A DNA stretch of 64,000 nucleotides. Source: Aquilaria yunnanensis. Lineage: Eukaryota > Streptophyta > Magnoliopsida > Malvales > Thymelaeaceae. Below the pieces are notes generated by a model. It saw only the letters and a list, made by a program, of their open reading frames with translations, had not been told where the DNA came from and did not search any database. A program made the translations under genes and the position numbers. Positions 8,965 to 63,728 of this stretch are shown here, piece after piece (position 1 is the first letter of the stretch; the number at the start of each line of letters is the position of its first letter). The DNA lies in the NCBI GenBank assembly GCA_039654915.1, contig CM077599.1, forward strand, positions 8,248,501 to 8,312,500, in the 5' to 3' direction.

Positions 8965-8994
8965 TCCTATCCTTACCTTTGTGAGAAAAGAGGA

Positions 8995-16702: not shown

Positions 16703-16705
16703 AGC

Positions 16706-23393: not shown

Positions 23394-23445
23394 TTTGATC
23401 CTCGTCTTCCACTGGCTTTGCGTCCAGTAATGGCTTCAATGCTTT

Positions 23446-23994: not shown

Positions 23995-24210
23995 TGATGA
24001 AGGAGGCAAAGAAAGAAATTAGTGATTGTAGGAAACGAAAATAACTAACACATATTTATAGTGATGAAAGGGATAATGCGTTAATTACACTTACAGAAGC
24101 AAGTACATTATTGTCAAAAGAAAAGACAAATGACAGCTTATATGTACAGCAATCATGACTGTGGCTCTCATCTTCCACTGATTTATATCTAGTAATGGCT
24201 TCAATGCCTT

Positions 24211-24759: not shown

Positions 24760-25005
24760 TGATGAGAGAAGAATTTGAGAGATGATGGAAAGGAATTAGT
24801 TATTGAAGGAAACTTAGATAACCGACTGGAAGAACATGCATTTATAGCGATGAAATGGATAACGTGTCGATTACACTTACGGGAGCAAATACATTATTAA
24901 AAGAAAAATGGAAAATTTTAAATATGATAAATTGTATGTACAGTGATTGTGACTGTGGCTCACATCTTCCACTGGTTTTACGTCCAGTAACGGGATTAAT
25001 GGCTT

Positions 25006-25554
25006 CTATGAGTCGAGGATTTGCTTCCCATCCAGTTTTCTTACAAGCTGACAAATAGGGTCGTTTAACGTCAGATTCCCGGGACTGTATCGTTCTCGTT
25101 CTTCATGAAAAATGCTCCACAAACCAAGTAGTTCACGTTGCACAGATCCACAAGAATGCGTCTCAAGAGTCAATTGGATATCATCCAACGAGTCTTTACT
25201 CAAGCCATTCTTAATGAATCGTATTTTATCTTCTCGATTATCAGAGATCATCCCTAAAGAACGACATTTAGTATTACAAGTCCACCGTCCACATTTATGG
25301 CAGACTTGTAACCTTTTCGCTCTTCGCTTTTTGGCATAAGAGCTTTTGCCTATACCAGGCATGTGAGACACAAATGCCTCTGGGATTTCACCTGCTAGAC
25401 GAACCTTGGCTTCGATTAACCACCGTACATCTTCAGGGATTCCTTTGTGCATCAGAACTCTTAATCGTTCACAGCGAACTTGGTAGATCTTTTTGAGGAT
25501 GTTCATTGGGAGAGAAGGGAAATACTTTCGCAAGGCGGAAAAAGTAGAATCCAT
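25006..25554 (-). CDS. CRP-A, copy 2
   Basis: 182 aa, ATG at 25554, identical to copy 1. First cargo gene downstream of the gag spacer. Basic patch 74-81; cysteines 85, 88, 93 and 97. As in copy 1 there is no obvious TATA block upstream, only the shared proximal leader, so it might be read from the LTR transcript or an unseen promoter. Confidence 0.75.
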   Translation of the reverse strand: MDSTFSALRKYFPSLPMNILKKIYQVRCERLRVLMHKGIPEDVRWLIEAKVRLAGEIPEAFVSHMPGIGKSSYAKKRRAKRLQVCHKCGRWTCNTKCRSLGMISDNREDKIRFIKNGLSKDSLDDIQLTLETHSCGSVQRELLGLWSIFHEERERYSPGNLTLNDPICQLVRKLDGKQILDS

Positions 25555-28500
25555 TTTCTAGGAGGAAGTAAAAGAAAGAAGGGGTGAAGGAATCAGTTAT
25601 TATGGGCAACTGAGAGAACCGACTTGAGAGTCACGGAGTACCGTATCCGCCGTTTAACCGGAAAAGTAGATCCTACTTCATTTTGATAGATATATTTTTT
25701 TTTATCCGTTGATCCAGTCCTCGATTATTGAATCCATTGTCCGCTTTTGACAAAGTTTCAACGACAATATTTCTTGATGTCTGCCTTATCTTTGACCACA
25801 GCTATCTCTTATCTTGGATGCTGCTAAGCTGGCATCAATCCTGTCCTTTCAGGTGTAGCCTCGATTATTGAATCAATTGCCAAGCTTTTGACAATATTGT
25901 CTACTTTATCCTTTTTGATATCTGCCTTATCCTTGGCTATAGCTATCTCTTATTTTGGATACTACTAGCTGATGTCAATCCTGTCCTTCCAGGTGTAGTC
26001 TCGATTATTGAATCAATTGCCAGGCTTTTGACATATTGTCTACCTTATCCTTGAATTCCTGATGCGGGTTGGTCCTGCATATTAGCTGTGTATCCAGTGA
26101 TAGATTGGTAAGAGCTGATATTATTGAGATCTCAGCTTATACTGCTGTAACGGTGCGGTGGATGTGTTTCCCATTTGATTCCTATCGTGTAAAAATCATG
26201 CATGCATGATGTGAAATGCATGAATGCAAAGCATGTGTAATTGATGGTTTTTTTTTTTTATTTTTATTTATATTTATTTTTTTATTTTTTATTTTTTTTG
26301 GATTGATCTAGTTCTTCATATCTTTGCTTTACTGGATCCTCTTTATAATTGCCTTCTTGGACTATCATTGAATCTCTTTATGCTTTCCAGCTTTTGTTCA
26401 CTGCCTCAAAAGCCCAACTCTTTTCAAAATCCCCTTTCTTTGACTTGTTCTTGAATTTTGGCCTCAATTTCTTTAAAGTTGGCCCGCCTCATAATTTATA
26501 TCTCTTTCGGGTACTCATCCATTGTCATGGATTTGATACCATCAAAGGCTTTACTTTCAATGTCTGCTTTGCCCATTTTCTTCTGGCCGTGCGGACACTT
26601 GTTTACCCCCATGTTACAGTCCGAATGATTGCTCTTCCTTAGACTCAGGTTCTGATCCATAAGACTTGCCCCCTTGTCTATTGAGCTTCTTTCTTGGCAG
26701 TACTTTTCTTGCGCTTAGTAGAGACTACTTTGCCCCCTTGATTATGGTGTTTATGTGAAAAGAGATATCATCTCGCCTTTGATTTAACAGAAGGTTGAGG
26801 ATTTCTAGACCTTTGTGATGGCACTTGATCGTAAATTTCTCTTACAAGAACCACATCTTATTAAAGAAAGACTCAAGCTATCTCCTTACTTTTAAGTCTA
26901 CATACATTAATGAATAATGGTTTGGCCTTAAAGAAAAACTTTCATCAATTTTCAAAGCTTGACAAAGTAATTTACGGTCTTTGTTTTCAATTAAAATGTC
27001 CTGTCATTCTTCCCTTTCCAACTCGAAGACATAAACTGTGCAAGGCAATAAGGTAGAAACATGATTCACAATAATAGCCTTTTAACTGAATGAGGATGAT
27101 ATCGAGAGGTAAATGTTAGGTGTGAGGAAAGTTAAGTTTGAATGTTTTTTTTTTTTGTGGCAGTCTTTTAGCTGAATGAGAATGATATTAAGAGGTAAAT
27201 ATTAGGTCTGAATAAAGTTAAGTTTGAGTGGTGTGAAAGAAGGGTCTTTTAATACTACTCGTGAGCAAATTTGATTATGGTGAAAAACTCAATAGTGATG
27301 ACCTCAAACTTGCCACTCTTTCCAGAAAGTTAGACCTCATCTGTTGCCCCCCAACTATTGTGATCTTTATGCATGCTTGGTTTGAGGGTTGCTTTTGTGT
27401 TCTAAACCGCCTTTGCAGGTTTTCAGTCTAGAATCCATAGCTCACTTTTTTTCTTTTTTTTTTTTTTTTTTTCTAGTTTGAGCCCTTTTTCCTCTTTTTT
27501 TTTTTTTGTTTTTTTGTTTTTTTGTGTGAGCTATGGTGATAACATACTTGATAACTCTCTTGAAGTGAGATGACTCAAGTGGCCTTGCTTGCTCGTGCTT
27601 GTTCTCAGTTCTTTTTGGTTTTGAATTTTCCCTTGTTGGCTTTTTGGTGGAAGGGATGAACTTTTTCCTTTTCGGAGTTTTTGTTACAGAGAACCGAGAT
27701 CATAGCCTTCTTGAAATGAGATGATTCAAGTGGCCTTACTTGCTTGTGTTTGCTCTCAGTCTCGCTTTTTTTGGTTTTGAATTTTCCCTTGTTGGCTTTT
27801 TGATGGAAGGGATGAACTTTTTCCCTTTTTTTTTTTTGGAGTTTGTGTTATGGAGAACCGAGATCATAGCCTTCTTGAAGTAAGATGACTCAAGTGGCTT
27901 TATTTGCTTCTCAGTCTCTTTTTTTTTTTGGATTTTTTTTTCTTGTTTGGATTTTCTCTTTAATGGCTTTTGATGGAAGGGAGGAACTTCTTTCCTTTGT
28001 TGGAATTTGTGTTGTGGAAAACTGAGAATTTTTTTTTTGTATTGAGCATTTGTGAGAATTGGGAGGCCACTGAAGTCATTTAATATGAGAGCTAACTTCT
28101 TTGGAAGTTAATCCCGGACTCCTTGCAAGGATGTTGATAACCACTGTGAATTCTTTTTTAGGGTTGAGGTGCAACATTTGGAATCCTTCTTACTAGATTT
28201 GGTAGCACTTTGAAGATCATTACTATCAAATCTCCCTTAACTTTTATTTTCACCCACGAGTAGTATTGTTTACAAAGTAAAGTGTGATGGTAATAATGGA
28301 TAGTATAATGGCAAAGAGTGAGAGATAGATGTAAGAAAAATGAAATTTTTGGTAGAAAGTGGTAGAATATGTGGATGTAAAAATGAAATTTTAGTAAAAA
28401 GTGGTAGAATGCACACATTACATCTTTTTGTTGTACCAAGAAAAAGAATACCAGGTGCCCATTTAACAAAGACTACACCCTAGATTCTGGACTAAATCTA

Positions 28501-28679
28501 GGAGATTTTTACTATTAGATTACTTTGGCAAGCTATCAAAGATACAAGTTTATTCAAAGGATTCCTTGTCATTCAAAAATGTGTGCGAACTGTTAGGTCA
28601 GATCTGACTTGGAGGCCTTCCAAAGTCAATGTAATTCTAGCTCGAAATCTTCACTTTTCAATTATCAATCACATCGGGC
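25555..28679. other. Spacer between CRP-A and gag, copy 2
   Basis: Same layout as the copy-1 spacer: ~143-bp repeats at 25714-26058, ~150-165-bp repeats at 27552-28018, poly-T runs. One substitution from copy 1 (25694 A, 11806 T). No pol coding sequence. Confidence 0.7.
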
Positions 28680-29504
28680 CTAGCAACTTGGACTTGGTTT
28701 TGCTTGATGAGGCGGCAATGGATTGTGGGTGACATTTGGCTCATCGGAAAAGTCCAACCACTTTGACTCGATTAATTGTTGAACTATACGCTTCAATGCC
28801 ATGCAGTTTTCCAAGCCATGGCCTGGAACGCCATCATGATATGGGCAGGTAATGTTAGGGTCATACCACCTTGGATATGGGGGTTTGAATGGCTTTGTAG
28901 GAATTGGACGGATAAATTGTCTTTCGATGAGTTTTGGGTATAACTCGGTATAAGTTATGGAAATTGGTGTGAAAACTTCTCTTGGTTTTGGTGCAGGTAC
29001 TGGAGGAGTAGGAGCAGGTGGCCATGACTGATTAGGTCTGTTAAAAGGATAATTGTTGGGCCTATTGGAAGGATAATCATTGGGCCCATTGGCAAAATAG
29101 GATAGGCGAGGTCCGATAGCCACAGTATCCACGAGGGGAATCCTTCTTCTGCGTCCTATTTGTTGTACTTCGTCATCTTTTCTTCTAGATGGTCCTCCTC
29201 TTTTCATAGGATTATTAAAGGATTCAGTAATATTCCCAGTCCTAATCTCATGCTCGATTTTTTCTCCAGACATGACAATGTTAGAAAAATTAGTTGCCGA
29301 ATTGCCAAGGTGTTCGTCATAATATAGGTACTTCAGTGTCTGGACAAACAAAGTGACCATTTCTCTTTCTGTCATGGGTGGCTGAACTTGTGCTTCTTGA
29401 ATTGCTTTCGCCTTGATTAACTCGATCAATTGTCTCATTTGTTCGGCCATACTTTCTATCTTGGACTCTATCTTTATGAGACGTCTTTCGATTTGTTCTG
29501 CCAT
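28680..29504 (-). pseudogene. gag: Internally deleted Tat/Ogre-like gag, copy 2
   Basis: 274 codons with the same two deletions as copy 1, so the deletions predate the tandem duplication. It keeps an open frame of N-terminal coil, partial capsid tail, a short proline-rich RPNxYP region (two to three units against about six in copy 3) and one C/H knuckle. Confidence 0.85.
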
Positions 29505-30571
29505 TAATCTTATTTGGAGCCGAGTTGAATATCAGTGTCGAGGTCCAATTTTATCCTTTTAAAAGTAAGATATATTTTATTAGATCCTATGTGTATGTGA
29601 TTGATGCAATGGATGCATGTAGGAAAAATGAGATTATGTTTTTATCAGACTTTGTATGCACATGATTGATGTAATGGATGTATGCAACGAGATTATGTTT
29701 TTATCAGACTTTATATGCACGTGATTAATGTAATGGATGTATGCAATGAGATTATGTTTTTATCAGACTTTATATGCACGTGATTAATGTAATGGATGTA
29801 TGCAATGAGATTATGTTTTTATCAGACTTTGTATGCACGTGATTAATGTAATGGATGTATGCGATGAGTGAATTTGATTATCCACTATCGTGGAACTTCA
29901 AAACTTTTAGTTGTCATTATAAAGACCAAAAAGTTAGTATAATTTGATGCGTGGTTTTAATGCATGAAGAATAATTGCACAAGAAAGATAAGGTTATTAA
30001 TAAGTTAAATAGCAATTAACAACTCATAAAGTATTATGGATAAACAAGTTAAAACCATACGAAGGAAAGTGTATAGTAACAACACAGCATAACAAGGATA
30101 TGCTTATGGTGTTGGTAAAAATGGTAGAAATTCTATGGTCAGTTCTATGGTTAAGTGGGGAGTTCTATATGCATAAGGTGGCTTATCAAAAAGGCAAGGG
30201 ATAGTTCCCGAATCCCATCACTAAATCATAGTGACGGCCCGATTCCTTACCCTCTAGGGTTAATGTAAGGAATGGATTAATTCGAGTCGTAGCTTTTCGT
30301 GGGCCCATGCAGAGACTAACCGTCTCAGAAGGCAATACACTACTTTGCTACTTTGAAACCGGTGAAGGCTTGGAGACCGTGGCCTCACAAGGACAGCAAC
30401 ACCAATTCCGTTTAGAAAGAATCGTGTTTGATTTAAGGAAGCTCGGGTATAGAGCTTCATATTGTGAATGCATTATGCATGTTTAGAATAAGTAAATATA
30501 ACATATAAATCCACATAATAAGCAAAGTAAATCAAAACAAATCAACTTTAGGCTCGACTCACTAACGTGGA
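29505..30571. other. 5' leader of copy 2
   Basis: Same as copy 1: ~59-bp tandem repeats at about 29578-29863 and the conserved 66-codon minus-strand frame at 30260-30460. Confidence 0.6.
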
Positions 30572-30590
30572 GTCCCCAGTGGAGTCGCCA
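30572..30590 (-). other. Primer binding site, copy 2
   Basis: Minus strand TGGCGACTCCACTGGGGAC, three bases inside LTR 3. Same sequence in copies 1 and 3. Confidence 0.8.
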
Positions 30591-30593
30591 AGC

Positions 30594-33064
30594 TGTGGCA
30601 ACGTGCGGGCCGTTTTCGGGAGTCGCCACCAATCAGTTTTCTTAGGTCGATTGGTCACCTTAAAATTGGTCTGCGAGAGTTCGGGGATCGGGAGTACGGT
30701 TACGCTAAAACAACTTTGTTATAGCGCCCAAAATTGGCACCTTAGTTGATTTTAATTTTGTTTCACTTTGCTTTTAAATAAATTTCAGTTAATTTTCAAT
30801 CTAGAATTTTTAACTGAATTAATCGAAATGTGGATTTTTAAGTTAATTTGTATAAAATTTTATACTTCCGAACCATGGACTCTGCCGAGTCATTTGGACA
30901 CGGAAGATTTTGATTCCGAACCATGGACTCTGCCGAGTCATTTGGACACGGAATTTGGTGAAATTTTAAACAATTTTATCCATATTGTAAAAATATGGAT
31001 TTTTTTATCTTTTTATTTAATTTATTTATTTTAAAAAGTTTGATATTTTCCAAACCGTAGATCCTGCCGAATCATCCGGATATGGAAATTAAATTTAATT
31101 TATTGTTAGTTATATAATTATTACTTTTATGGAATTAATTATTAGTTTAATTACTAATTCGTAATTCTTTTTGTTATAGAATTTTTAGATAAAAAAATTT
31201 TATTTTTTATTTTCTTTCTTTTCTTTTCTCTCTTTTCTTTCTTATATTTTTCTTTTCTTTTTGATTTAATCTTTCTTTTCTTTTCTTTCTTTTCTTTCTT
31301 TTCTTTCTTTTCTTATCTTTCTTATCTTTTTCTTATCTTTCTTTTCTTTTCTTTTTCTTGTCTTTCTTATCTTTTTCTTATCTTGTTTTAATTTTCTTTT
31401 TGTTTTCTTGTTTAATGAAAAATATTTATTATTTTAGTGGATTTAAAAGTTATATTTTAAATAAATCAGTAAAATATAAAGTCTTAATTTTCATGTATTT
31501 TTTTTTAAACAGGTTTTATTTTTATTTTTTTATTATTTTTACTGGATAAAAATAACTATTAAAATTAATTTTAACTTTTTGTTATCTTTAAAGAATTAAA
31601 AACATGTATATAAAAATAAAAATAATTGGCTTTTTTAAAAATGATTTTTATTAGCCTTAATAATTAATTACAAAATAATCTTCTTTTAATTTTCATTTAT
31701 TTATTAATTAGTAAAGGGTAAAGGTGAATTAAATAAAAAAATTATATAAAGAAAAAAAATTAATAATAATAAAGTGGGGCTTTTTGGCCATCCACTTTAA
31801 AAATAATAATAAATGTTAGCAAAGTTAATTAAATTAATTGTTAAACAACAATAATAAAAATTTAGTCAAGTTAATTAAATTAATTAATTAACAACAATAA
31901 CAAAAAGTTAGCCAAGTTAATTAAATTAATTAATTAACAACAATAATAAAAAGTTAGCCAAGTTAATTAAATTAATTAATTAACAACAATAATAAAAAGT
32001 TAGCCAAATTAATTAAATTAATTAACAACAATAAATAAAAAGTTAGCCAAATTAATTAAATTAATTAACAACAATAAATAAAAGTTAATTAATTGTTAAC
32101 AACAATTATAAAAGTTAGTAATAATGCAAAAATTAAAAGGTTAGTAACAATAATAGTATTAAAAGTTAGTTGTTAGTAAGTTAATAACAACAATAAAAAA
32201 AAGGGGTTAGTAATAAACAAATAATAAACAAACAAGTAAAAATTAAAAGGGTTAGTAATTAATTCTGCAAGAATAAAATACAAAGTTAGTGACCAAAGTG
32301 AAAGAAATTGAAAAGATGAAGGATTAAATGAGAGTTGTACCCTTGATTTTAAATTCTGAATTCTGAGAAATGGAAACAGAGGGCGCGCGACGGGGGGAAG
32401 AAGATGGCTTAATCGTCAAAATGAAAAGTTTTGAGATTTTCTGAGGAAAGGAAGGAGAGCTAGGGACTAAGGCTGTAATTTTTTCTATTTTAAAAACGGA
32501 GCTCTAAGCTTTTCTTTCTATTTTTCTCTGTGTTCAGCACAAAATTTGGGGGGCTATTTATAGAGGAAGTTTGGCTGAACTGTTGATGGATAAATTAATA
32601 AAAAATTTCAAACTTATCTTTTAAATTGGTAAAATGACAATTTTAGTCCTTTACGTCTCTCAGCCTCAGGATAAGTTCCTGAAGCTTCTGATTTTGACAA
32701 TTTTGTCGTTTTCTGTCAATTTGAGCCAAAAACGTCGGCAGGCTCAAAATTTTATGTGACAAACTACCAAATGCTCCTGGAACTTTTAGAATTTGTCAAT
32801 TTTTTCCGAAACTTCTCAATTTTGTCATTTTTACCTCAAACTTTTAATTTTTTGTCATTTTTTTCATGAAATTTTATTTTATTTCAAACATACACATATT
32901 CACACATATATCATTTTAAATCAAATTTTCACAAAACAAAAATATATTTTAAACTAATTAAATTTTTTTTAATAATAATAGTAATATATTTTTTTTTAAA
33001 TTAATTTTTTTAATAAAATTTTTTTCAAAATTTTAAAACACCCGGACGAAATTGGGTGTCAACA
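30594..33064 (-). repeat. LTR 3 (outer 5' LTR in element sense)
   Basis: 2471 bp, matching LTR 1 at all positions compared by eye. It drives the element in sense (minus) from the TATA box at 32554-32563. Hairpin cluster 30866-31087, pyrimidine tract 31191-31396, AT-rich array 31806-32106. Confidence 0.92.
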
Positions 33065-33069
33065 AAAAT
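33065..33069. repeat. 5-bp target-site duplication (right), AAAAT
   Basis: Directly follows the LTR 3 terminus and matches 2813-2817. Confidence 0.88.
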
Positions 33070-51975: not shown

Positions 51976-54563
51976 TGTTGACACCCAATTTCGTCCGGGT
52001 GTTTTAAAATTTTGAAAAAAATTTTATTAAAAAAAATTAATTTAAAAAAAAAAATATATTACTATTATTATTAAAAAAAATTTAATTAGTTTAAAATATA
52101 TTTTTGTTTTGTGAAAATTTGATTTAAAATGATATATGTGTGAATATGTGTATGTTTGAAATAAAATAAAATTTCATGAAAAAATGACAAAAAATTAAAA
52201 GTTTGAGGTAAAAATGACAAAATTGAGAAGTTTCGGAAAAAATTGACAAATTCTAAAAGTTCCAGGAGCATTTGGTAGTTTGTCACATAAAATTTTGAGC
52301 CTGCCGACGTTTTTGGCTCAAATTGACAGAAAACGACAAAATTGTCAAAATCAGAAGCTTCAGGAACTTATCCTGAGGCTGAGAGACGTAAAGGACTAAA
52401 ATTGTCATTTTACCAATTTAAGAGATAAGTTTGAAATTTTTTATTAATTTATCCATCAACAGTTCAGCTAAACTTCCTCTATAAATAGCCCCCCAAATTT
52501 TGTGCTGAACATAGAAAAAAAATAGAAATGAAGCTTAGAGCTCCGTTTTGAAAAAAGAAAAAATTATAGCCTAGGTCCCTGGCCCTCTTCTCTTCCTCTC
52601 CAGAAAACCTAAACCTTCTCTGACCCTTTTTTTTTTCTTTTTTTTCTCTCCCCCCGCGCGCGTGCGTTCTGTTCTTCACGTTTCCAGAATTTCAAATTCA
52701 GTTTTTAAGGGTACAACTCTCATTTAATCCTTCATCTTTTCAATTTTCTTTCACTTTGGTCACTAACCTTTTATTTTGTTCTTGCAGAATTAATTACTAA
52801 CCCTTTTAATTTTTACTTGTTTGTTTATTATTTGTTTATTACTAACCCCTTTTTTTATTGTTGTTATTAACTTACTAACAACTAACTTTTAATACTATTA
52901 TTGTTACTAACCTTTTAATTTTTGCATTATTACTAACTTTTATAATTGTTGTTAACAATTAATTAACTTTTTATTATTGTTGTTAATTAATTAATTTAAT
53001 TAACTTGGCTAACTTTTTATTATTGTTGTTAATTAATTTAATTAACTTGTCTAACTTTTTATTATTTTTGTTAATTAATTAATTAACTTGGCTAACTTTT
53101 ATTGTTGTTAATTAATTAATTAATTAACTTGGCTAACTTTTATTGTTGTTAATTAATTAATTTAATTAACTTGGCTAACTTTTATTGTTGTTAATTAATT
53201 AATTTAATTAACTTGACCAACTTTTTATTATTGTTGTTAATTAATTAATTTAATTAACTTGACTAACTTTTTATTATTGTTGTTAATTAATTAATTTAAT
53301 TAACTTGACTAACTTTTTATTATTGTTGTTAATTAATTAATTTAATTAACTTGACTAACTTTTTATTATTGTTGTTAATCAATTAATTTAATTAAACTTG
53401 GCTAATTTTTATTATTGTTGTTAATTAATTTAATTAACTTTGCTAACCTTTATTATTATTTATTTTTAAAGTGGATGGCCAAAAAGCCCCACTTTATTAT
53501 TATTAATTTTCCTTTATATAATTTTTTTATTTAATTCACCTTTACCCTTACTAATAAATAAATAAATGAAAATTAAAAGAAGATTATTTTTTTAATTAAT
53601 TATTAAGCCTAATAAAAATCATTTTTCAAAAATCCAATTATTTTTATTTTTCTTTTATAAATTGAATAATTATTTAAATAATAAATAACTTTCACTAAAA
53701 AAAACACTAAAAGAAAGATAAGAAAAAGATAAGAAAGATAAGAAAGATAAGAAAAAGATAAAAAAAAAGAAAAGAAAGAAAGAAAAGAAAGAAAAGAAAA
53801 AGAAAAGATAAAAAAAGAAAAGAAAGAAAAGAAAAAGAAAAGAAAAGAAAAGAAAGAAAAGAAAGGAAAAATAAAACTAAAAGAAAGATAAAATCAATAA
53901 GAAAGAAAAGAAAGAAAGAAAAGAAAGAAAAGAAAAGAAAATATAAAGAATAAAAAATAAAATTTTTTAGATTATTAATAAATCTAAAATTTTCATAAAC
54001 AAAATACTTACAAATTAGTAATAATAAATTCCATAAAAATAATAATTATATAACTAACAATTAATTAAAGTAATTTCCATATCCGGATGATCTGGCAGGA
54101 TCTACGGTTTGGAAAATATTAACTTTTTTTTTTAACTAAATAAATTAAATAAATATAAAGATAAAAATCCATATTTACAATATGGATAAAATTGTTTAAA
54201 ATTTCACCAAATTCCGTGTCCAAATGACTCGGCAGAGTCCATGGTTCGGAATCAAAATCTTCCGTGTCCAAATGACTCGGCAGAGTCCATGGTTCGGAAG
54301 TATAAAATTTTATACAAATTAACTTAAAAATCCACATTTCGACTAATTCAGTTAAAATCTCTAAATTAACTAAAAATTATTTAAAAGCAAAGCGAAACAA
54401 AATTAAAATCAACTAAGGTGCCAATTTTTGGGCGTTTTAACAAAGTTGTTTTAACGTAACCGTACTCCCGAACCCCCGAACTCTCGCAGACCAATATTTA
54501 AGGTGACCAATCGACCTAGGTAAACAGATTGGTGGCGACTCCCGAAAACCCGACGTTGCCACC
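51976..54563 (+). repeat. 5' LTR of copy 3
   Basis: 2588 bp, starts TGTTGACACCC; the terminal CA is changed to CC at 54562-54563. U3 is almost the same as in LTRs 1-3, but R/U5 differs by many substitutions and indels: the AT-rich array is expanded (52935-53450) and the purine tract (53697-53945) rearranged. TATA box CTATAAATAG at 52479-52488. Five bases before it are CCAAT, the expected target duplication to look for at the far end. Confidence 0.9.
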
Positions 54564-54566: not shown

Positions 54567-54585
54567 TGGCGACTCCACTGGGGAC
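54567..54585 (+). other. Primer binding site, copy 3
   Basis: TGGCGACTCCACTGGGGAC, identical to copies 1 and 2; tRNA-Arg type as in Tat/Ogre elements. Confidence 0.8.
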
Positions 54586-55542: not shown

Positions 55543-57447
55543 ATGGCAGAACAAGCTGAAGGACGTCTCATGGAGATGGAGTCCAAGATTGAAAGTATGG
55601 CAGAACAAATGAGACAATTGATGGAAATAATCAAAGGGAAAGCAACTCAAGTTCCCATCAAAGAAGCACAAGATCCCACTTATCCTCCGGGAATCACCCC
55701 ACAACGAGTCTCAGTCCAAGAAAACCTGTTTCAGGAACCAGGACAGTCTGCTAGTGTTCACCTAAAACAAGACACTGTGTATGAAGAGAAGAAGACACCA
55801 CCAAAGGAAGAAGGAGAATCTCAAAAACTCGAAACAATAGAGAAGAGACTGCGAGCCATTGAAGGAGGTAATATATTCGGATCTCTCTCAGTGGATGACC
55901 TCTGCTTAGTGCCAGACGTCATAATCCCTTCGGACTTTAAAGTACCGGATTTCGTAAAATACGACGGAACGAGTGATCCCATCACTCACATCACACTGTT
56001 CCTAAGGAGACTACAACCACTCACAAAAGATGAAAATGTGTGGATTGCACTTTTTCAGGAAAGTCTCACAAAATCAGCATTGCAGTGGTATCTAAGTCAA
56101 GGACCAAGAAACATCAAAACTTGGAATGACCTTGCTCAGGCCTTCATCGGCAACTATAAACATATTATGGACTTGGCTCCGGATCGCCAAACTCTCCAAA
56201 ACATGGAGAAGAAAAAGCCAGAAACTTTCAAGGAATATGCCCAACGGTGGAGGGACTTAGCTGCACAAGTTCAGCCACCCATGACAGAAAAAGAAATGGT
56301 CACTTTGTTTGTCCAGACACTGAAATACCCATATTATGACAAACTCATTGGCAATTCGGCAACTAATTTCTTCGATGTTGTCATGTCTGGAGAAAGGATC
56401 GAGCATGGGATTAGGACTGGGAAGATTGCTGAGTCCTTTAGTGATCCTATGAAAAGAGGAGGACCATCCAGAACAAAAGATGAAGAAGTACAACAAATAG
56501 GACGCGAAAGAGGGATTCCCCTCATAGGTACTGTGGCTACCGGTCCTCGCCTATCCTATTCTGCCAAAAGGCCCAATTATTATCCTACCAATAGGCCCAA
56601 TGACTATCCTCCCAATATGCCCAATGATTATCCTTCCAATAGGCCTAATGATTATCCTCCCAATAGGCCCAACAATTATCCTCTCAATAGGCCTAATCAG
56701 TTACGGCCACTTGTTCCGACTCCTTCAGTACCCACACGAAGACCAAAAGAAGTTTTTGCACCAATTCCCATGACTTACACTGAGTTGTATCCAAAACTCA
56801 TTGAAAGTCAACTTATCCGTCCAATTCCTACAAATCCATTTGGACCCCCATATCCAACGTGGTATGACCCCAACATAACTTGCCCATATCATGATGGCGT
56901 TCCAGGCCATGGCTTGGAAAATTGCACAGCATTGAAACGTATAGTCCAACAATTAATCGAATCAAAGTGGTTGGACTTTTCCGATGAACCGAACGTCACT
57001 CACAATCCATTGCCGCCTCATCAAGAAAAACCAGTCAATATGATAGAAGAACACCGGCTGATGAAAAAGTCAGTCAATGATATCATAACCCCTCTTAAGC
57101 ATGTATATTCATGCCTTGTGAAAGAAGGGATTATCATGGGAAAGCCTTCTTTTGGACATGAAGAAGTTGAAGATGAGGAATGGTGCAACTTTCATGACAG
57201 TAAGAGTCATTCTATCCAAGAATGCTCAGAATTCCGTAAGAATCTGCAAAGACTCATAGACTCATCCCAACTTATCATTTTTATGTCAGATAAAGATGAT
57301 GATGTGAATGTGATCATTAAAGAACAAGAAGTCAATGCTATACCAATCTCAAAACCTACTCTTAAGCCGTCAAGTCCCGAGGCCATTGCTCTACAAATCA
57401 AACAAAACCGAGGTCAAGCTGCTAGGCCCGATGTGATTGGTAATTGA
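55543..57447 (+). CDS. gag: Gag polyprotein, Tat/Ogre-like, intact
   Basis: 634 aa, start at ATG 55543 (MAEQAEGRL). N-terminal coiled-coil-like region (1-35), linker, capsid domain (about 138-290; KYDGTSDPITHI, WYLSQGP, ETFKEYAQRWRDLA are typical of plant Gypsy gag), then a proline-rich stretch with about six RPNxYPxN units. The C-terminal half has two C/H knuckles (CPYHDGVPGHGLENC and CNFHDSKSHSIQEC) and the YTELYPKLIE...WYDPN segment seen in Tat/Ogre gags. It forms the particle shell and packages RNA. It ends with a stop, without protease or pol following. Being the only full gag here, it could serve copies 1 and 2 in trans. Confidence 0.9.
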   Translation: MAEQAEGRLMEMESKIESMAEQMRQLMEIIKGKATQVPIKEAQDPTYPPGITPQRVSVQENLFQEPGQSASVHLKQDTVYEEKKTPPKEEGESQKLETIEKRLRAIEGGNIFGSLSVDDLCLVPDVIIPSDFKVPDFVKYDGTSDPITHITLFLRRLQPLTKDENVWIALFQESLTKSALQWYLSQGPRNIKTWNDLAQAFIGNYKHIMDLAPDRQTLQNMEKKKPETFKEYAQRWRDLAAQVQPPMTEKEMVTLFVQTLKYPYYDKLIGNSATNFFDVVMSGERIEHGIRTGKIAESFSDPMKRGGPSRTKDEEVQQIGRERGIPLIGTVATGPRLSYSAKRPNYYPTNRPNDYPPNMPNDYPSNRPNDYPPNRPNNYPLNRPNQLRPLVPTPSVPTRRPKEVFAPIPMTYTELYPKLIESQLIRPIPTNPFGPPYPTWYDPNITCPYHDGVPGHGLENCTALKRIVQQLIESKWLDFSDEPNVTHNPLPPHQEKPVNMIEEHRLMKKSVNDIITPLKHVYSCLVKEGIIMGKPSFGHEEVEDEEWCNFHDSKSHSIQECSEFRKNLQRLIDSSQLIIFMSDKDDDVNVIIKEQEVNAIPISKPTLKPSSPEAIALQIKQNRGQAARPDVIGN

Positions 57448-60429
57448 AAGTGAAGATTTTGAGCTGGAATTACATTGATTTTAGAAGGGCTCCAAGTCAG
57501 ATCTGACCTAACAGTCCGCATACATTTTCGAATGACAGGGAATCCTTTGAATAAACTTGTATCTTTGAAAGCTTGCAAAAGTAATTTAATAGTAAAAATC
57601 TCCTAGATTTAGTCCAGAATCTAGGGTGTAGTCTTTGTTAAATGGACACCTGCTATTCTTTTTCTGGTACAACAAAAAGATGTTGCGTGTGCATTCTACC
57701 ACTTTTTAATCCCATTATTAATTCTACACATTCTACCAATTTTTACCAAAAATTCAATTATTACACCTACACATTCTACCACTTCTTACCAAAAATTCCG
57801 TTTTTATATCCATCTCTCACTCCTTTCCATTATACTATCCATTATTGCTATCACACTTTACTTTGAAAACGATACTACTCGTGGGTGAAAATAAAAAGTT
57901 AAGTGAGATTTAATAGTGGCAATCTTGAAAGTGCTGTCAAATCTAGTAAGAAGGATTTCATATGTTGCACCCCAACTCTAAAAAAAAAGAATTCATAGTG
58001 GTTATCAACATCCTTGCAAGAAGTTTGGGGTTAGTTTCCAAACAAGGTAGCTCTCATATTAAATGACTTCAGTGGCCTCCCAATTCTCACAAATGCTCAA
58101 TACAAAAAAAAAAAAAAGATTCTCAGTTTTCCGCAACACAAATTCCAACAAAGGAAAGAAGTTCATCCCTTCCATCAAAAGCCATTAAAGGGAAAATTCA
58201 AAAACAAAAAAAAGAGACAGAGAGCAAACACAAGCAACTAAAGCCACTTTAATCATTTCACTTCAAGAGGGCTATGATCTCAGTTCTTTGCAACACAAAC
58301 TCCGAAAAGAGAAATTCATCCTTTCCATCAAAAGACAACAAGGGAAAATTCAAAACCAAAAAGGACTGAGAACAAGCATGAGCAAGCAAGGCCACTTGAG
58401 TCATCTCACTTCAAGAGAGTTATCAAGTATGTCATCACCATAGCTCACAAAAAAAAAAAAGGGAAACAAAAAAAAAAAACAAAAAAAAAAAAGAGGAAAA
58501 AGGGCTCAAACTAGAAAAAAAAAAAAAGAAAAAAAGTGAGCTATGGATTCTAGACTGAAAACCTGCAAAGGCGGTTTAGAATACAAAAGCAACCCTCAAA
58601 CCAAGCATGCATAAAGATCACAATAGTTGGGGGGCAACAGATGAGGTCTAACTTTCTGGAAAGAGTGGCAAGTTTGAGGTCATCACTATTGAGTTTTTCA
58701 CCATAATCAAATTTGCTCACGAGTAGTATTAAAAGACCCTTCTTTCACACCACTCAAACTTAACTTTATTCAGACCTAATATTTACCTCTTAATATCATT
58801 CTCATTCAGCTAAAAGACTGCCACAAAAAAAAAAAAACATTCAAACTTAACTTTCCTCACACCTAACATTTACCTCTCGATATCATCCTCATTCAGTTAA
58901 AAGGCTATTATTGTGAATCATGTTTCTACCTTATTGCCTTGCACAGTTTATGTCTTCGAGTTGGAAAGGGAAGAATGGCAGGACATTTTAATTGAAAACA
59001 AAGACCGTAAATTACTTTGTCAAGCTTTGAAAATTGATGAAAGTTTTTCTTTAAGGCCAAACCATTATTCATTAATGTATGTAGACTTAAAAGTAAGGAG
59101 ATAGCTTGAGTCTTTCTTTAATAAGATGTGGTTCTTGTAAGAGAAATTTACGATCAAGTGCCATCACAAAGGTCTAGAAATCCTCAACCTTCTGTTAAAT
59201 CAAAGGCGAGATGATATCTCTTTCCACATAAACACCATAATCAAGGGGGCAAAGTAGTCTCTACTAAGCGCAAGAAAAGTACTGCCAAGAAAGAAGCTCA
59301 ATAGACAAGGGGGCAAGTCTTATGGATCAGAACCTGAGTCTAAGGAAGAGCAATCATTCGGACTGTAACATGGGGGTAAACAAGTGTCCGCACGGCCAGA
59401 AGAAAATGGGCAAAGCAGACATTGAAAGTAAAGCCTTTGATGGTATCAAATCCATGACAATGGATGAGTACCCGAAAGAGATATAAATTATGAGGCGGGC
59501 CAACTTTAAAGAAATTGAGGCCAAAATTCAAGAACAAGTCAAAGAAAGGGGATTTTGAAAAGAGTTGGGCTTTTGAGGCAGTGAACAAAAGCTGGAAAGC
59601 ATAAAGAGATTCAATGATAGTCCAAGAAGACAATTATAAAGAGGATCCAGTAAAGCAAAGATATGAAGAACTAGATCAATCCAAAAAAATAAAAAATAAA
59701 AAAATAAATATAAAAATAAATAAAAAAAAAAAAGAACCATCAATTACACATGCTTTGCATTCATGCATTTCACATCATGCATGCATGATTTTTACACGAT
59801 AGGAATCAAATGGGAAACACATCCACCGCACCGTTACAGCAGTATAAGCTGAGATCTCAATAATATCAGCTCTTACCAATCTATCACTGGATACACAGCT
59901 AATATGCGGGACCAACCCGCATCAGGAATTCAAGGATAAGGTAGACAATATGTCAAAAGCCTGGCAATTGATTCAATAATCGAGACTACACCTGGAAGGA
60001 CAGGATTGACATCAGCTAGTAGTATCCAAAATAAGAGATAGCTATAGCCAAGGATAAGGCAGATATCAAAAAGGATAAAGTAGACAATATTGTCAAAAGC
60101 TTGGCAATTGATTCAATAATCGAGGCTACACCTGGAAGGACAGGATTGATGCCAGCTTAGCAGCATCCAAGATAAGAGATAGCTGTGGTCAAAGATAAGG
60201 CAGACATCAAGAAATATTGTCGTTGAAACTTTGTCAAAAGCGGACAATGGATTCAATAATCGAGGACTGGATCAACGGATAAAAAAAAAAATATCTATCA
60301 AAATGAAGTAGGATCTACTTTTCCGGTTAAACGGCGGATACGGTACTCCGTGACTCTCAAGTCGGTTCTCTCAGTTGCCCATAATAACTGATTCCTTCAC
60401 CCCTTCTTTCTTTTACTTCCTCCTAGAAA
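57448..60429 (+). other. Spacer between gag and CRP-A, copy 3
   Basis: About 3 kb without a credible gene; ~150-165-bp repeats at 58115-58440, A-rich runs at 58450-58540, ~143-bp repeats at 59930-60265. From about 58550 onward the sequence is almost identical to copies 1/2, while gag and the part before it differ strongly. No protease, reverse transcriptase, RNase H or integrase motif was seen. Confidence 0.7.
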
Positions 60430-60978
60430 ATGGATCCTACTTTTTCCGCCTTGCGAAAGTATTTCCCTTCTCTCCCAATGAACATCCTCAAAAAGATCTA
60501 CCAAGTTCGCTGTGAACGATTAAGAGTTCTGATGCACAAAGGAATCCCTGAAGATGTGCGGTGGTTAATCGAAGCCAAGGTTCGTCTGGCAGGTGAAATC
60601 CCAGAGGCATTTGTGTCTCACATGCCTGGTATAGGCAAAAGCTCTTATGCCAAAAAGCGAAGAGCGAAAAGGTTACAAGTCTGCCATAAATGTGGACGGT
60701 GGACTTGTAATACTAAATGTCGTTCTTTAGGGATGATCTCTGATAATCGAGAAGATAAAATACGATTCATTAAGAATGGCCTGAGTAAGGACTCGTTGGA
60801 TGATATCCAATTGACTCTTGAGACGCATTCTTGTGGATCTGTGCAACGTGAACTTCTTGGTTTATGGAGCATTTTTCATGAAGAACGAAACCGTTACAGT
60901 CTCGGGAATCTGACTGTAAATGACCCTGTTTGCCAGCTTGTAAGAAAACTGGATGGGAAGCAAATCCTCGACTCATAG
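60430..60978 (+). CDS. CRP-A, cysteine-rich nucleic-acid-binding-like protein, copy 3
   Basis: 182 aa. Basic patch 74-81 and cysteines 85, 88, 93 and 97 intact. Five residues differ from copies 1/2 (Ser3 to Pro and four near the C-terminus). The changed C-terminal bases make it resemble CRP-B of copies 1/2 (RYSLGN, TVNDPVCQLVRK), suggesting gene conversion between paralogues. No TATA block directly upstream; leader GTGACTCTCAAGTCGGTT is shared with CRP-B. Confidence 0.75.
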   Translation: MDPTFSALRKYFPSLPMNILKKIYQVRCERLRVLMHKGIPEDVRWLIEAKVRLAGEIPEAFVSHMPGIGKSSYAKKRRAKRLQVCHKCGRWTCNTKCRSLGMISDNREDKIRFIKNGLSKDSLDDIQLTLETHSCGSVQRELLGLWSIFHEERNRYSLGNLTVNDPVCQLVRKLDGKQILDS

Positions 60979-61140
60979 AAGGCGTTAATGTCGTTACTAG
61001 ATGTAAAGCCAGTGGAAGATGTGAGTCACAGTCACAATTACTGTACATACAGTTTGTTATATTTGGAAAAGTTTGCATTTTCTTTTGACAGATGTACATG
61101 CTCCCCTAAGTGTAATCGACACGTTATCCCTTTTCATCAC

Positions 61141-61148
61141 TATAAATG
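61141..61148 (+). promoter_or_regulatory. CRP-B TATA box, copy 3
   Basis: TATAAATG within TTATCCCTTTTCATCACTAT..., about 127 bp before the CRP-B ATG. Copies 1/2 lack about 40 bp of the leader that follows. Confidence 0.6.
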
Positions 61149-61267
61149 CGTGTTCTTCCTTCTGATTAAGCAGCGGATAAGATACCTCGTGACTTCTAAA
61201 GTCGGTTATTCCAGTCTCCTACAATAACTGATTCATTTCCCTCTTCTCTCAAATTCTTCTCTCATCA

Positions 61268-61816
61268 ATGGATTCTACTCTTTCTACACTGCGAAAATAC
61301 TTTCCTTCCCTTCCAATAAAAGTCCTTAAAAAGATCTACCTTGCTAGATGTGAAAGAATCAGAGTTTTTACACGCAAAGGCATTCCCGATAATGTGCAGT
61401 GGATAATTGAAGCTAAGGTCCGTTTGGCAGGTGAAGTTCCAGATGCATTTATGCCCCGCATGCCCGGTTTAGGTAAAAGCCGTTATGCCAAAAGGCGAAG
61501 AGCAAAGAGACTAGGCGTGTGTTATAAATGTGGGCGATGGAATTGTATTACTAAATGTCGCTCTTTAGGATACATCTCCATAAATCGTGAAGATAAAAGA
61601 AAATTCATTAAGAATGGCCTGCGTAAGGAATCTCTGGAAGATATCCGAGAGACTCTTGAAACGCATTCTTGTGGAAAAGTGCAAGGTGAAATTATCAGTT
61701 TATGGAGGACTTACCATAAAGAACGAAACCGTTACAGTCTTGGGAATGTGACTTTAAACGATCCTGTTTGTCAGTTTGTAAGAAAACTGGATGGGAAGCA
61801 AATCCCCGACTTATAG
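61268..61816 (+). CDS. CRP-B, cysteine-rich nucleic-acid-binding-like protein, copy 3
   Basis: 182 aa. About 14 residues differ from copy 1, mostly in the C-terminal third; the basic patch is identical, and in the finger CYKCGRWNCITKC all cysteines are kept. The pattern (changes outside the finger, frame preserved) suggests constraint on the nucleic-acid-binding part. Own TATA box. Function unknown beyond likely nucleic-acid binding. Confidence 0.75.
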   Translation: MDSTLSTLRKYFPSLPIKVLKKIYLARCERIRVFTRKGIPDNVQWIIEAKVRLAGEVPDAFMPRMPGLGKSRYAKRRRAKRLGVCYKCGRWNCITKCRSLGYISINREDKRKFIKNGLRKESLEDIRETLETHSCGKVQGEIISLWRTYHKERNRYSLGNVTLNDPVCQFVRKLDGKQIPDL

Positions 61817-61966
61817 AAGGCATTGAAGCCATTACTGGACATAAATCAGGGGAAGATGAGAGCCACGGTCATGATTCCTGTACATATAAGTTGTCATTTG
61901 TCTTTTCTTTTGACAATAATGTACTTGCTTCTGTAAGTGTAATTAACGCATTATCCCTTTCATCAC

Positions 61967-61974
61967 TATAAATA
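61967..61974 (+). promoter_or_regulatory. CRP-C TATA box, copy 3
   Basis: TATAAATA after TTATCCCTTTCATCAC, 66 bp before the CRP-C ATG. Confidence 0.6.
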
Positions 61975-62032
61975 TGTGTTAGTTATTTTCGTTTCCTACA
62001 ATCACTAATTTCTTTCTTTGCCTCCTTCATCA

Positions 62033-62581
62033 ATGGAGTCTTCTCTTTCCGCCTTACGAAAGTATTTTCCTTCCTTCCCAATAAATGTTCTTAAAAAGAT
62101 TTATCAAGCTAGATGTGAACGATTCAGAGTATTTATGCACAAAGGCATCCCTGATAATGTGCGGTGGCTAATTGAAGCTAAGGTTCGTTCAGCTGGTGAA
62201 GTTCCCGAAGCGTTCTTTCCCCGTATGCCCGGCTTTGGTAAAAGCGCTTATGCCAAAAAAAGAAGAGCAAAGAGGCTAGGCGTTTGTCATAATTGTGGAT
62301 GGTGGATTTGCGGCAATAAATGTCGTTCTCCAGGAGTGATCACCAGAAATCGTAATGATAGAATAAAATTCATCAAGAATGGCTTGCGTAAGGAATCTCT
62401 GGAAGATATTCGAGAGGTTCTTGAAGCGCATTCTTGCGGAATAGTGCAATTTGAGGTTGTTGGATTATGGATAATTTTCCAAAAAGAACGAGATCGTTAT
62501 AGTCTTGGGAATCTGACTTTAAACGACCCAGTTTGCCAGTTTGTGAGAAAACTGGATGGGATGCAAATCACCGATTCATAG
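62033..62581 (+). CDS. CRP-C, cysteine-rich nucleic-acid-binding-like protein, copy 3
   Basis: 182 aa from the ATG at 62033; the frame extends 15 bp further upstream but without an ATG. Four residues differ from copies 1/2. Finger CHNCGWWICGNKC with preceding AKKRRAKR. Followed at 62636 by the ~86-bp array and then LOG. Confidence 0.75.
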   Translation: MESSLSALRKYFPSFPINVLKKIYQARCERFRVFMHKGIPDNVRWLIEAKVRSAGEVPEAFFPRMPGFGKSAYAKKRRAKRLGVCHNCGWWICGNKCRSPGVITRNRNDRIKFIKNGLRKESLEDIREVLEAHSCGIVQFEVVGLWIIFQKERDRYSLGNLTLNDPVCQFVRKLDGMQITDS

Positions 62582-62635
62582 AAAGCATTGAAGCCATTAC
62601 TGGACGCAAAGCCAGTGAAAGACGAGGATCAAAGT

Positions 62636-63000
62636 CACGATTACTGTACGTGCTAGCTGTCGCTTTTGGAAATTTTCCTCCCCTTTTGGTAATAATGTAT
62701 CCACTCCTGACGTGAACCAAAGTCACGATTACTGTACGTGCTAGCTGTCGCTTTTGAAATCTTCCTCCCCTTTCGGCGATAATGTATCCACTCCTGACAT
62801 GAGCCATAGTCACGATACTGTACATGCTAGCTGCCACTTTTTAAAATTTTCCTTCTCTTCCAACAATCACGTACCTACTCCTGACGTAAGCTACAGTAGT
62901 GACTACTGTACATGCTAGCAGCTATTTTGAAAATTTTCCTCCTCTTTTAACGATAGTGTACCCATACCTGACCAGAGTCATACTCGTGACTACTGTGAAT
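62636..63000 (+). repeat. ~86-bp tandem repeat upstream of LOG, copy 3
   Basis: Four units (five in copies 1/2). TGACGTG at 62708-62714 and TGACGTAAG at 62882-62890; in the other units the core is TGACATG or TGACCAG. TGACGTAAG is the as-1-type site for TGA bZIP factors. The same ATTACTGTACATRC block is present downstream of each CRP, so the array grew from an intergenic unit of the CRP cluster. Confidence 0.75.
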
Positions 63001-63058
63001 AGCTAGCAATAATGTATCCATTCTTGAAAATAAAATTATTGCCTTATCTCTTCATCTC

Positions 63059-63068
63059 TATAAATATA
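63059..63068 (+). promoter_or_regulatory. LOG TATA-like box, copy 3
   Basis: TATAAATATA preceded by CCTTATCTCTTCATCTC, homologous to the CRP-B and CRP-C promoter blocks. 40 bp from the chosen LOG ATG. Confidence 0.5.
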
Positions 63069-63098
63069 TCCTCTTTTCTCACAAGGGTAAGGATAGGA

Positions 63099-63728
63099 AT
63101 GGAGAAAACCCCAACTCGTAAATCCCGAAGTATTTGTGTATTTTCTGGGGCTTTTCCTGGAAAAGATGAAGAGTATTTAAAAGCAGCCAACCATTTGGGA
63201 AGAGTATTAGCTGAGCGAAAAATACATTTAGTTTATGGAGGAGGTAGTGTCGGATTAATGGGAGGTGTAGCATCAGCAGCATCTCTAGGAGGAAGTCAAG
63301 TTTTGGGCATTATCCCTGGACCTCTGAAATTTATTTCTGGGGGCACGATTGGAGAAGAATTAGTGGTTAAAAATTTGCAAGAGCGTGTGTTACAAATGCT
63401 TTTAAATGCTGATGCTTTTATCGCTCTACCAGGTGGTTTTGGCACATTGGGAGAAGTCTTTCAAATTGCTTCCATGGCCCAACTTAATTCGCATAAGAAA
63501 CCCATTGGGCTTTTAAATGTTAACAATTTCTTTACAGGTCTGATAGCTTTTATGGATTATGCTATGCAGAAGAATTTCATATCAAGAGTGGCACGGCGAA
63601 TCATAATATCCGCAACAACTGCTGAAGAATTGCTAGATAAAATACAAGCTTTTGTTCCTGAACCAGATCCAGCAATGATTCAGATAGACTGGACACGACA
63701 GTCTTTCCCGACCAGTTCACTCCCATAA
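63099..63728 (+). CDS. LOG-like: LOG-type cytokinin riboside 5'-monophosphate phosphoribohydrolase, copy 3
   Basis: 209 aa. GGGSVGLMG at 47-55, Arg96, PGGFGTLGE at 111-119, then the GLLNVNNFF and ARRIIISATTAEELL segments typical of plant LOGs. Differs from copy 1 by two residues: Pro for His in GIIPGPL (Pro is the usual plant LOG residue, so copies 1/2 carry the derived form) and Ser for Leu in QLNSHKKP. Only about five nucleotide changes in 630. Single open frame with no introns. Product would raise local free cytokinin. The upstream in-frame ATG at 63012 precedes the TATA-like box and is less likely. Confidence 0.87.
   Translation: MEKTPTRKSRSICVFSGAFPGKDEEYLKAANHLGRVLAERKIHLVYGGGSVGLMGGVASAASLGGSQVLGIIPGPLKFISGGTIGEELVVKNLQERVLQMLLNADAFIALPGGFGTLGEVFQIASMAQLNSHKKPIGLLNVNNFFTGLIAFMDYAMQKNFISRVARRIIISATTAEELLDKIQAFVPEPDPAMIQIDWTRQSFPTSSLP

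What the first reader, a model, noticed from the sequence alone, without database searches (positions are those of the whole stretch)
55543..63728. A gag-only LTR retrotransposon carrying a cytokinin-activating LOG gene plus three virus-like zinc-finger genes
Seen: within one set of LTRs, in sense, lie gag, three 182-aa basic cysteine-rich paralogues and an intact LOG with PGGFGTLGE. All four cargo frames are open in all three copies. Known: LOG enzymes release active cytokinin; carlavirus cysteine-rich proteins bind nucleic acid, and some suppress silencing or alter cell proliferation (Chrysanthemum virus B p12 is the reported case). Inference: the element may alter host cell division or silencing to favour its own spread. 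I know of no described retrotransposon with this cargo.
Basis: partly seen in the sequence, partly recalled or inferred. Interest (0 to 1): 0.93.

Follow-up and report, generated by a model that had tools for sequence, protein, structure and literature searches.

The report
Retrotransposon carrying virus-like CRPs and LOG
A plant jumping gene in which no copying enzyme was found carries three genes resembling nucleic-acid-binding and silencing-suppressor proteins of certain plant RNA viruses, plus an altered relative of a plant-hormone enzyme, and the virus-like genes look old and kept by selection.

Summary
Element B (51976 to beyond 64000, +) has a 5' LTR, PBS, gag, three 182-aa CRPs and a LOG-type ORF. 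A tandem LTR-body-LTR-body-LTR array, A (2818-33064, -), carries the same cargo, but its gag is broken. No pol was found in the ORFs scanned. The CRPs pass Pfam's cut-offs for carlavirus-type nucleic-acid-binding proteins; structure search ranks the same kind of virus proteins first, weakly. A profile search gave 465 CRP homologues (120 listed; named hosts in five eudicot genera). One fetched contig, plant by inference, has integrase followed by a CRP in sense. CRP selection is purifying (dN/dS about 0.2), and noncoding flanks of CRP1 and CRP2 are conserved. LOG is not simply 'intact': catalytic Arg and Glu remain, but three adenine-binding residues are changed, and its whole sampled clade lacks a lysine seen in canonical LOGs. 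LOG domains in Ty3/gypsy elements are in print; my searches found no report of such CRPs. Best reading: a non-autonomous gypsy-type element keeping an old accessory module whose CRPs probably bind nucleic acid and help the element, perhaps against silencing. The cytokinin idea is weakened.

The parts
51976..54563 (+). 5' LTR of element B (TGTTGACACCC start)
   Evidence: alignment to the three LTRs of A; ends read
54567..54585 (+). primer binding site TGGCGACTCCACTGGGGAC, 3 nt after the LTR; tRNA-Arg-like (tRNA sequence recalled, one mismatch)
55543..57447 (+). gag, 634 aa from ATG (ORF open from TTG 55420)
   Evidence: PF03732 8.7e-12; 634 aa
60322..60395 (+). conserved noncoding block upstream of CRP1, also in L001
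   Evidence: 60 of 72 sites identical to L001
60430..60978 (+). CRP1, 182 aa
   Evidence: PF05515 2.6e-07, PF01623 5.2e-06
60979..61039 (+). conserved noncoding block downstream of the CRP1 stop, also in L001
   Evidence: 50 of 61 sites identical to L001
61141..61147 (+). TATA-box-like site before CRP2 (ATCACTATAAAT)
61162..61236 (+). copy of the upstream block before CRP2
   Evidence: 53 of 73 sites identical to L001
61268..61816 (+). CRP2, 182 aa
   Evidence: PF05515 2.2e-07, PF01623 3.1e-05
61967..61973 (+). TATA-box-like site before CRP3
62033..62581 (+). CRP3, 182 aa
   Evidence: PF05515 3.8e-06, PF01623 2.2e-04
62630..62972 (+). tandem array, about 3.9 copies of 87 bp, upstream of LOG
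63059..63065 (+). TATA-box-like site 40 bp before the likely LOG start
63099..63728 (+). LOG-type ORF, 209 aa from the likely start (238 aa from 63012)
   Evidence: PF03641 1.3e-30; start by alignment to relatives
2818..33064 (-). element A: LTR-body-LTR-body-LTR tandem array, period 13888
2813..2817 (.). target-site duplication AAAAT, left copy
33065..33069 (.). target-site duplication AAAAT, right copy
2818..5288 (-). A: outer 3' LTR; 2471 of 2471 bp identical to the LTR at 30594-33064
16706..19176 (-). A: shared middle LTR
30594..33064 (-). A: outer 5' LTR
8335..8964 (-). A1 LOG ORF (209 aa)
9558..10106 (-). A1 CRP3
10323..10871 (-). A1 CRP2
11118..11666 (-). A1 CRP1
14687..15616 (-). A1 gag relic (matches gag residues 1-36 and 241-522)
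22223..25554 (-). A2: LOG, CRP3, CRP2, CRP1, all open

Best explanation
SHOWN: B and A are LTR retrotransposons of gypsy type by gag (gag in B, gag broken in A; no pol detected in the ORFs scanned). They carry three tandemly duplicated genes for a basic zinc-finger protein of the Viral_NABP/Carla_C4 family, followed by a LOG-type gene. The CRPs belong to a conserved, selected family; the same module, with its noncoding flanks, follows the integrase in a pol-bearing element from another source (L001). INFERRED: the element is mobilised in trans by a pol-bearing relative. The cargo genes are probably expressed as separate units (TATA-like sites before CRP2, CRP3 and LOG). The CRPs bind nucleic acid and help the element itself, most likely by counteracting host silencing of its RNA or DNA, as some of their viral relatives do. 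LOG descends from a host cytokinin enzyme, but in this lineage its substrate pocket has changed, so it is more likely repurposed or decaying than a working cytokinin-releasing enzyme.
For: LTR, TSD, PBS and PPT. Pfam matches. CRP homologues: 141 by single sequence and 465 by profile, 120 listed each time; named hosts Xanthoceras, Acer, Rhamnella, Orobanche, Populus. L001: rve integrase, then CRP in sense. Rhamnella model P0080 joins a CRP to 111 aa that are 70% identical to L001's integrase C-terminus. CRP with LOG elsewhere: Rhamnella P0089 (label PF01623 + PF03641); contig lengths coincide in 4 cases between 68 CRP and 33 LOG contigs (0.72 expected, P 0.005). Selection: L001 against CRP1-3 w 0.20-0.28 at dS 0.94-1.08; paralogues w 0.17-0.32, p <= 3e-7. 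Flanks of CRP1 83% and 82% identical to L001 against 29 of 49 fourfold sites, Fisher p 0.006 and 0.011. BFVD: of the first 26 ranks, 23 are named and all 23 are flexivirus proteins. LOG residues, tree. A's outer LTRs are identical although its gag is broken, so A moved or was copied recently, with help.
Against: No function was assayed. No BFVD match reached E 0.001; over the first 26 ranks TMq is 0.17-0.39 and ranks 25-26 have E above 1. The finger spacing differs from the carlavirus one (0 of 108 rows). Our own Pfam scan of P0089 found only the LOG part. Contig identity behind equal lengths was not checked. Downstream flank of CRP3 is not more conserved than fourfold sites (p 0.39). CRP2 and LOG show no significant constraint between A and B (w 0.53 and 0.41). 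A/B copies are mosaics. L001 has no LOG within its 3330 bp. No whole-genome count could be made (14 genome-search requests unanswered).
Confidence: 0.55

Rival explanations
1. CRPs are RNA chaperones or nucleocapsid-like helpers: they bind element RNA for packaging, stability or translation, without suppressing silencing.
For: Basic run just before CxxC in 83 of 108 rows and CX2CX4CX3C in 88 of 108; conserved noncoding blocks beside the CRP ORF could be binding sites; gag is lost in A while the CRPs stay open.
Against: Several viral proteins in the hit list are annotated as RNA silencing suppressors; nothing here separates binding from suppression.
Confidence: 0.27
2. One reading: LOG is an active cytokinin-releasing enzyme, and the element raises cell division to spread.
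For: Open frame, PGGXGTXXE motif, catalytic Arg and Glu kept; LOG-type genes of the same clade elsewhere; YgdH in Citrus and Populus elements (PMC9289625).
Against: Met96, Lys100 and Glu121 equivalents are Leu, Val and Gly; alanine changes at the AMP site nearly abolished CgLOG activity, S19A excepted (PMC4979012, passages; the passage does not list each mutant and notes Asp at the Glu121 place in MmLOG); Lys absent in 32 of 32 sampled rows of the clade; long stem branch 0.58.
Confidence: 0.1
3. Passenger cargo: host or viral gene pieces picked up by chance and carried neutrally.
For: Gene transduction by plant LTR elements is known (PMC7264820, part read); A and B frames could be open because the copies are young (at 0.03 substitutions per site about half of such frames survive).
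Against: CRPs conserved across eudicot genera, dN/dS 0.2-0.28 at dS about 1 against L001, CRP together with LOG elsewhere.
Confidence: 0.08

Closest known systems
Plant Ty3/gypsy elements with extra ORFs, including a YgdH/LOG domain (Steinbauerova 2011: not held, abstract recalled; PMC9289625: one section and passages read)
   Same: LOG-type domain inside Ty3/gypsy elements (Citrus, Populus trichocarpa reported)
   Different: In what I read of them, no CRP and no gag-only carrier is mentioned
TR-GAG non-autonomous LTR retrotransposons (definition from PMC5818461, passages read)
   Same: gag present, no pol found (element B)
   Different: Carries four accessory genes; A has also lost gag; B's 3' LTR not in the window
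Flexivirus nucleic-acid-binding / cysteine-rich proteins (Pfam PF05515, PF01623)
   Same: Sequence family above Pfam cut-off, basic run before a CxxC finger, best-ranked predicted viral structures
   Different: 182 aa with a C-terminal part beyond the Pfam match, finger spacing CX2CX4CX3C instead of CX2CX12CX4C, encoded by a retroelement
Plant LOG cytokinin riboside monophosphate phosphoribohydrolases
   Same: Protein family, PGGXGTXXE, catalytic Arg and Glu
   Different: Split from 7 cellular LOGs with 99/97 support, pocket residues changed, Lys absent in all sampled rows of its clade

Membership tests
LTR retrotransposon | LTRs with TG..CA ends, 5-bp TSD, PBS, PPT | tested here: met
   Element A:
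LTR retrotransposon, Ty3/gypsy type | Retrotrans_gag domain above Pfam cut-off | tested here: met
   B: PF03732 8.7e-12; Ty3_capsid 1.7e-05 is below its curated cut-off. That PF03732 marks gypsy rather than copia is recalled
LTR retrotransposon, Ty3/gypsy (autonomous) | pol (protease, RT, RNase H, integrase) | tested here: not met
   No pol domain in the 6 element ORFs nor in 10 further ORFs out of the more than 100 listed; L001 integrase finds nothing in the window (best E 4.9). Not every ORF was scanned, and the end of B is missing
TR-GAG | two LTRs, gag present, pol absent | tested here: inconclusive
   B: one LTR in the window, gag intact, no pol found; A: LTRs present but gag broken
Tat/Ogre or Athila lineage | RT-RH-INT phylogeny, aRH domain | not testable with these tools
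   No pol found in A or B; a Tat/Ogre-like gag and tRNA-Arg PBS are recalled impressions only. L001 looks Athila-like by recalled integrase motifs
Viral_NABP / Carla_C4 protein family | profile score above Pfam's gathering score | tested here: met
   3 of 3 window CRPs, both families; L001's CRP passes Viral_NABP but not Carla_C4
Carlavirus cysteine-rich protein | finger C-X2-C-X12-C-X4-C (spacing given for one carlavirus in PMC8839810, passages) | tested here: not met
   0 of 108 rows; 88 of 108 have CX2CX4CX3C
Carlavirus cysteine-rich protein | predicted fold | tested here: inconclusive
   Top 26 BFVD ranks: 23 named, all flexivirus; none with E <= 0.001
Carlavirus cysteine-rich protein | silencing suppression | not testable with these tools
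   needs an assay
LOG phosphoribohydrolase | PGGXGTXXE with catalytic Arg99 and Glu122 (CgLOG numbers) | tested here: met
   Arg 35 of 35, Glu 35 of 35 rows of A2, window included
LOG phosphoribohydrolase | adenine-binding Met96, Lys100, Glu121 (CgLOG numbers) | tested here: not met
   window: Leu, Val, Gly
LOG phosphoribohydrolase | cytokinin-releasing activity | not testable with these tools
   needs an assay

The most novel reading that the evidence does not exclude
Plant LTR retrotransposons encode their own silencing suppressors, of the same protein family that flexiviruses use, kept across eudicots in pol-bearing and pol-less elements. The gene has passed between retroelements and RNA viruses, in a direction not yet known. 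A LOG enzyme was captured beside it and turned into a non-canonical protein: loss of a pocket Lys, and a basic [LM]xLxL tail in 27 of 30 sampled non-window members of its clade.
Probability: 0.3. Interest if true: 0.92.

Novelty: new variant of a known kind. Interest (0 to 1): 0.7.

Why it matters
If the CRPs work like their viral relatives, plant LTR retrotransposons carry a dedicated counter to the silencing that normally holds them down, and a gene exchange between retroelements and RNA viruses becomes traceable. It also warns annotators: a Populus gene named LOGL10 (P0205) falls in the same clade as the element's LOG, so part of the plant 'LOG family' may be transposon cargo.

Tried and rejected

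Counting notes: A1 used 23 CRP hits and A3 105, out of 160 listed together; the tree used the first 60 of A3's 108 rows. A2 used 33 of the 120 LOG hits listed, plus 2 window rows; the tree used 24 of A2's 30 non-window rows of the window's clade, 2 window rows and 7 cellular rows (P0122-P0126 cut to one LOG domain, and two PDB chains). Short, fused or odd-length hits were left out by eye. Membership of the window's LOG clade is by similarity, and by tree for those 24; a retroelement context outside the window was not seen for most of these rows. Contig lengths of at least 1500 and under 100,000 were copied by hand; one search left out three LOG contigs (one Thalictrum, two Paulownia), and repeats it with them, with the same 4 matches.

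Full report
WHAT IS THERE. The window holds two members of one LTR-retrotransposon family. Element A lies on the minus strand, 2818-33064, as LTR-body-LTR-body-LTR with a 13,888-bp period. It is flanked by the 5-bp repeat AAAAT. Its outer LTRs are identical over 2471 bp and the two units differ at 7 of 16,359 positions, so the array is young. Element B lies on the plus strand from 51976 and runs off the window. LTRs begin TGTTGACACCC; a PBS (TGGCGACTCCACTGGGGAC) follows the 5' LTR, and a purine-rich tract (AAAGGGGGGCAGC) precedes the 3' LTR of A. That the PBS fits a tRNA-Arg is recalled.

THE GENES. B has an intact gag (55543-57447; PF03732 8.7e-12), three 182-aa CRPs and a LOG-type ORF. In A the same CRPs and LOG are open in both units, but gag survives only as pieces. 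No pol was found: one search scanned gag, the gag relic and the cargo, one search scanned 10 further ORFs out of the more than 100 listed, and the integrase of L001 finds nothing in the window. A thus moved or was copied recently without an intact gag or pol of its own, which implies help in trans (inference).

HOW GOOD A WITNESS ARE THREE OPEN COPIES? Weak. A1 and A2 are duplicates. A and B are mosaics: a noncoding spacer differs at 11 of 1955 sites, gag at 101 of 847, the CRP1-CRP2 spacer at 35 of 246, CRP ORFs at 13-23 of 549, LOG at 5 of 630. At 0.03 substitutions per site about half of such frames stay open by chance. The case for function rests on other data.

CRPs ARE AN OLD, SELECTED FAMILY. 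Single-sequence search gave 141 homologues and a profile search 465, of which 120 were listed each time; named hosts are Xanthoceras, Acer, Rhamnella, Orobanche and Populus. The three window CRPs form one clade with P0001 and P0002 (100/98, 60 rows), so the triplication is local. Paralogues have dN/dS 0.17-0.32 (p <= 3e-7). Between A and B, CRP1 is 0.16 and CRP3 0.12 (p < 0.001), while CRP2 (0.53) and LOG (0.41, 7 differences) are not significant.

A POL-BEARING RELATIVE. The genome-contig scan found one locus, L001, 3330 bp, filed under a Nomurabacteria MAG but carrying a plant-type retroelement (plant origin inferred). A 496-codon frame with an integrase core (rve 2.4e-16) ends at 1594 and a CRP follows in sense at 1799. 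Its integrase motifs look Athila-like (recalled). Against window CRP1-3, dN/dS is 0.20, 0.22 and 0.28 at dS about 1. Homology to the window starts about 110 bp before the window CRP1 start and ends about 85 bp past its stop. For CRP1, 60 of 72 upstream and 50 of 61 downstream sites are identical, against 29 of 49 fourfold sites (Fisher p 0.006 and 0.011). For CRP2 it is 53 of 73 and 45 of 60 against 22 of 42 (p 0.04 and 0.02). For CRP3 downstream it is 41 of 61 against 22 of 38 (p 0.39, no difference). So the flanks of CRP1 and CRP2 look constrained; these p-values are not corrected for the five tests. A Rhamnella gene model (P0080) joins a CRP to 111 aa that are 70% identical to this integrase; an Orobanche model (P0107) joins a CRP to what reads like a retropepsin (recalled motif; Pfam found only the CRP).

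CRP WITH LOG ELSEWHERE. Rhamnella P0089 is listed with PF01623 and PF03641 and is 57% identical to CRP2 over 98% of it; our own Pfam scan found only the LOG part. Four contig lengths occur in both hit lists (1558, 2128, 4511, 8723; the two proteins of each pair share a source). The expectation is 0.72, P 0.005; for two or more over 4 kb P is 0.0004. This is circumstantial: contig identity was not checked.

WHAT CRPs RESEMBLE. All three pass Pfam's cut-offs for Viral_NABP and Carla_C4. They have a basic run before CxxC, as described for carlavirus CRPs (PMC8839810, passages), but the finger is CX2CX4CX3C in 88 of 108 rows and CX2CX12CX4C in none. With a 108-row alignment the model reached pLDDT 76.8, pTM 0.55. 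Foldseek against BFVD gave 56 matches at E <= 10 and none at E <= 0.001. Among its first 26 ranks 23 are named, and all 23 are plant flexivirus proteins (families recalled from the virus names; the first, Cherry mottle leaf virus 15-kDa protein, E 2.2e-3, checked as Betaflexiviridae), several labelled RNA silencing suppressor. Most named later ranks are unrelated phage or giant-virus proteins. Family homology is solid by profile; fold support is suggestive.

LOG. It is homologous to Arabidopsis LOGs. In a tree 26 LOGs, window included, separate from 7 cellular ones with 99/97 support. I call the 26 the window's clade. That its other members sit in retroelements is inferred from copy number, the CRP links above, and the published YgdH finding in Citrus and Populus elements (PMC9289625). 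By locus tag, 40 of the 120 best hits come from Reevesia pubescens, on 15 numbered chromosomes (hand count), as expected of a repeat family. In CgLOG, Arg99 and Glu122 are the proposed catalytic residues, Met96, Lys100 and Glu121 form the adenine site, and alanine changes nearly abolished activity, S19A excepted (PMC4979012, passages; the passage does not list each mutant). The window protein keeps the Arg and Glu but has Leu, Val and Gly at the other three. Lys is absent from 32 of 32 A2 rows of the clade and present in 3 of 3 cellular rows; the solved LOGs aligned (2a33, 1ydh, 5zbj/5zbk, 1t35) also have it. The Glu121 place keeps Glu in 28 of the 32. Of 30 non-window rows, 27 end in an [LM]xLxL tail after a basic stretch (23 by pattern, 4 with Met by eye); the window copies lack it. 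The stem to the window LOGs and P0121 is long, 0.58. I read this as repurposing of the clade and further change or decay here.

EXPRESSION. TATA-like sites sit before CRP2, CRP3 and LOG at matching places in A and B, none clear before CRP1, and an 87-bp array lies before LOG. This suggests separate transcripts; no expression data were available.

COMPARISON. Extra ORFs in plant gypsy elements are well known (PMC6317226, passages; PMC7264820, part 1 of 3 read). LOG/YgdH in Citrus and Populus elements is reported (PMC9289625, one section and passages). TR-GAG elements lack pol (PMC5818461, passages). I found no report of a flexivirus-type CRP in a retrotransposon (listings only).

LIMITS. 

Noticed in passing
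63939-63964 (and 8101-8126, 21989-22014): A stretch of about 27 nt downstream of LOG matches CRP coding sequence (TLETHP region) of L001 at 92.6%, E 0.001: possibly the relic of a fourth CRP.
   Followed up: partly
LOG homologues in alignment A2: 27 of 30 sampled non-window LOGs of the window's clade end in a basic stretch plus [LM]xLxL, which resembles an EAR motif (recalled); absent from window copies.
   Followed up: partly
L001:1-3330: Plant-type retroelement DNA filed in a Candidatus Nomurabacteria MAG: likely contamination (inference).
   Followed up: yes
L001:1645-1661: Pyrimidine-rich stretch ending GCAG before the CRP: possible 3' splice site, so CRP may be made from a spliced mRNA there.
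   Followed up: no
5399-7790 and 19287-21678: Large minisatellite arrays (85-bp and 51-bp units) between LOG and the 3' LTR of element A.
   Followed up: no
36930-37487 (-): ORF with a sub-threshold zf-RVT match (E 1.3e-4): probably a LINE remnant.
   Followed up: no
P0205, P0227 (Populus LOGL10): Database genes named LOGL10 resemble the window's LOG type (P0205 falls in that clade; P0227 only aligned in A2): annotation may count transposon cargo as host genes.
   Followed up: partly
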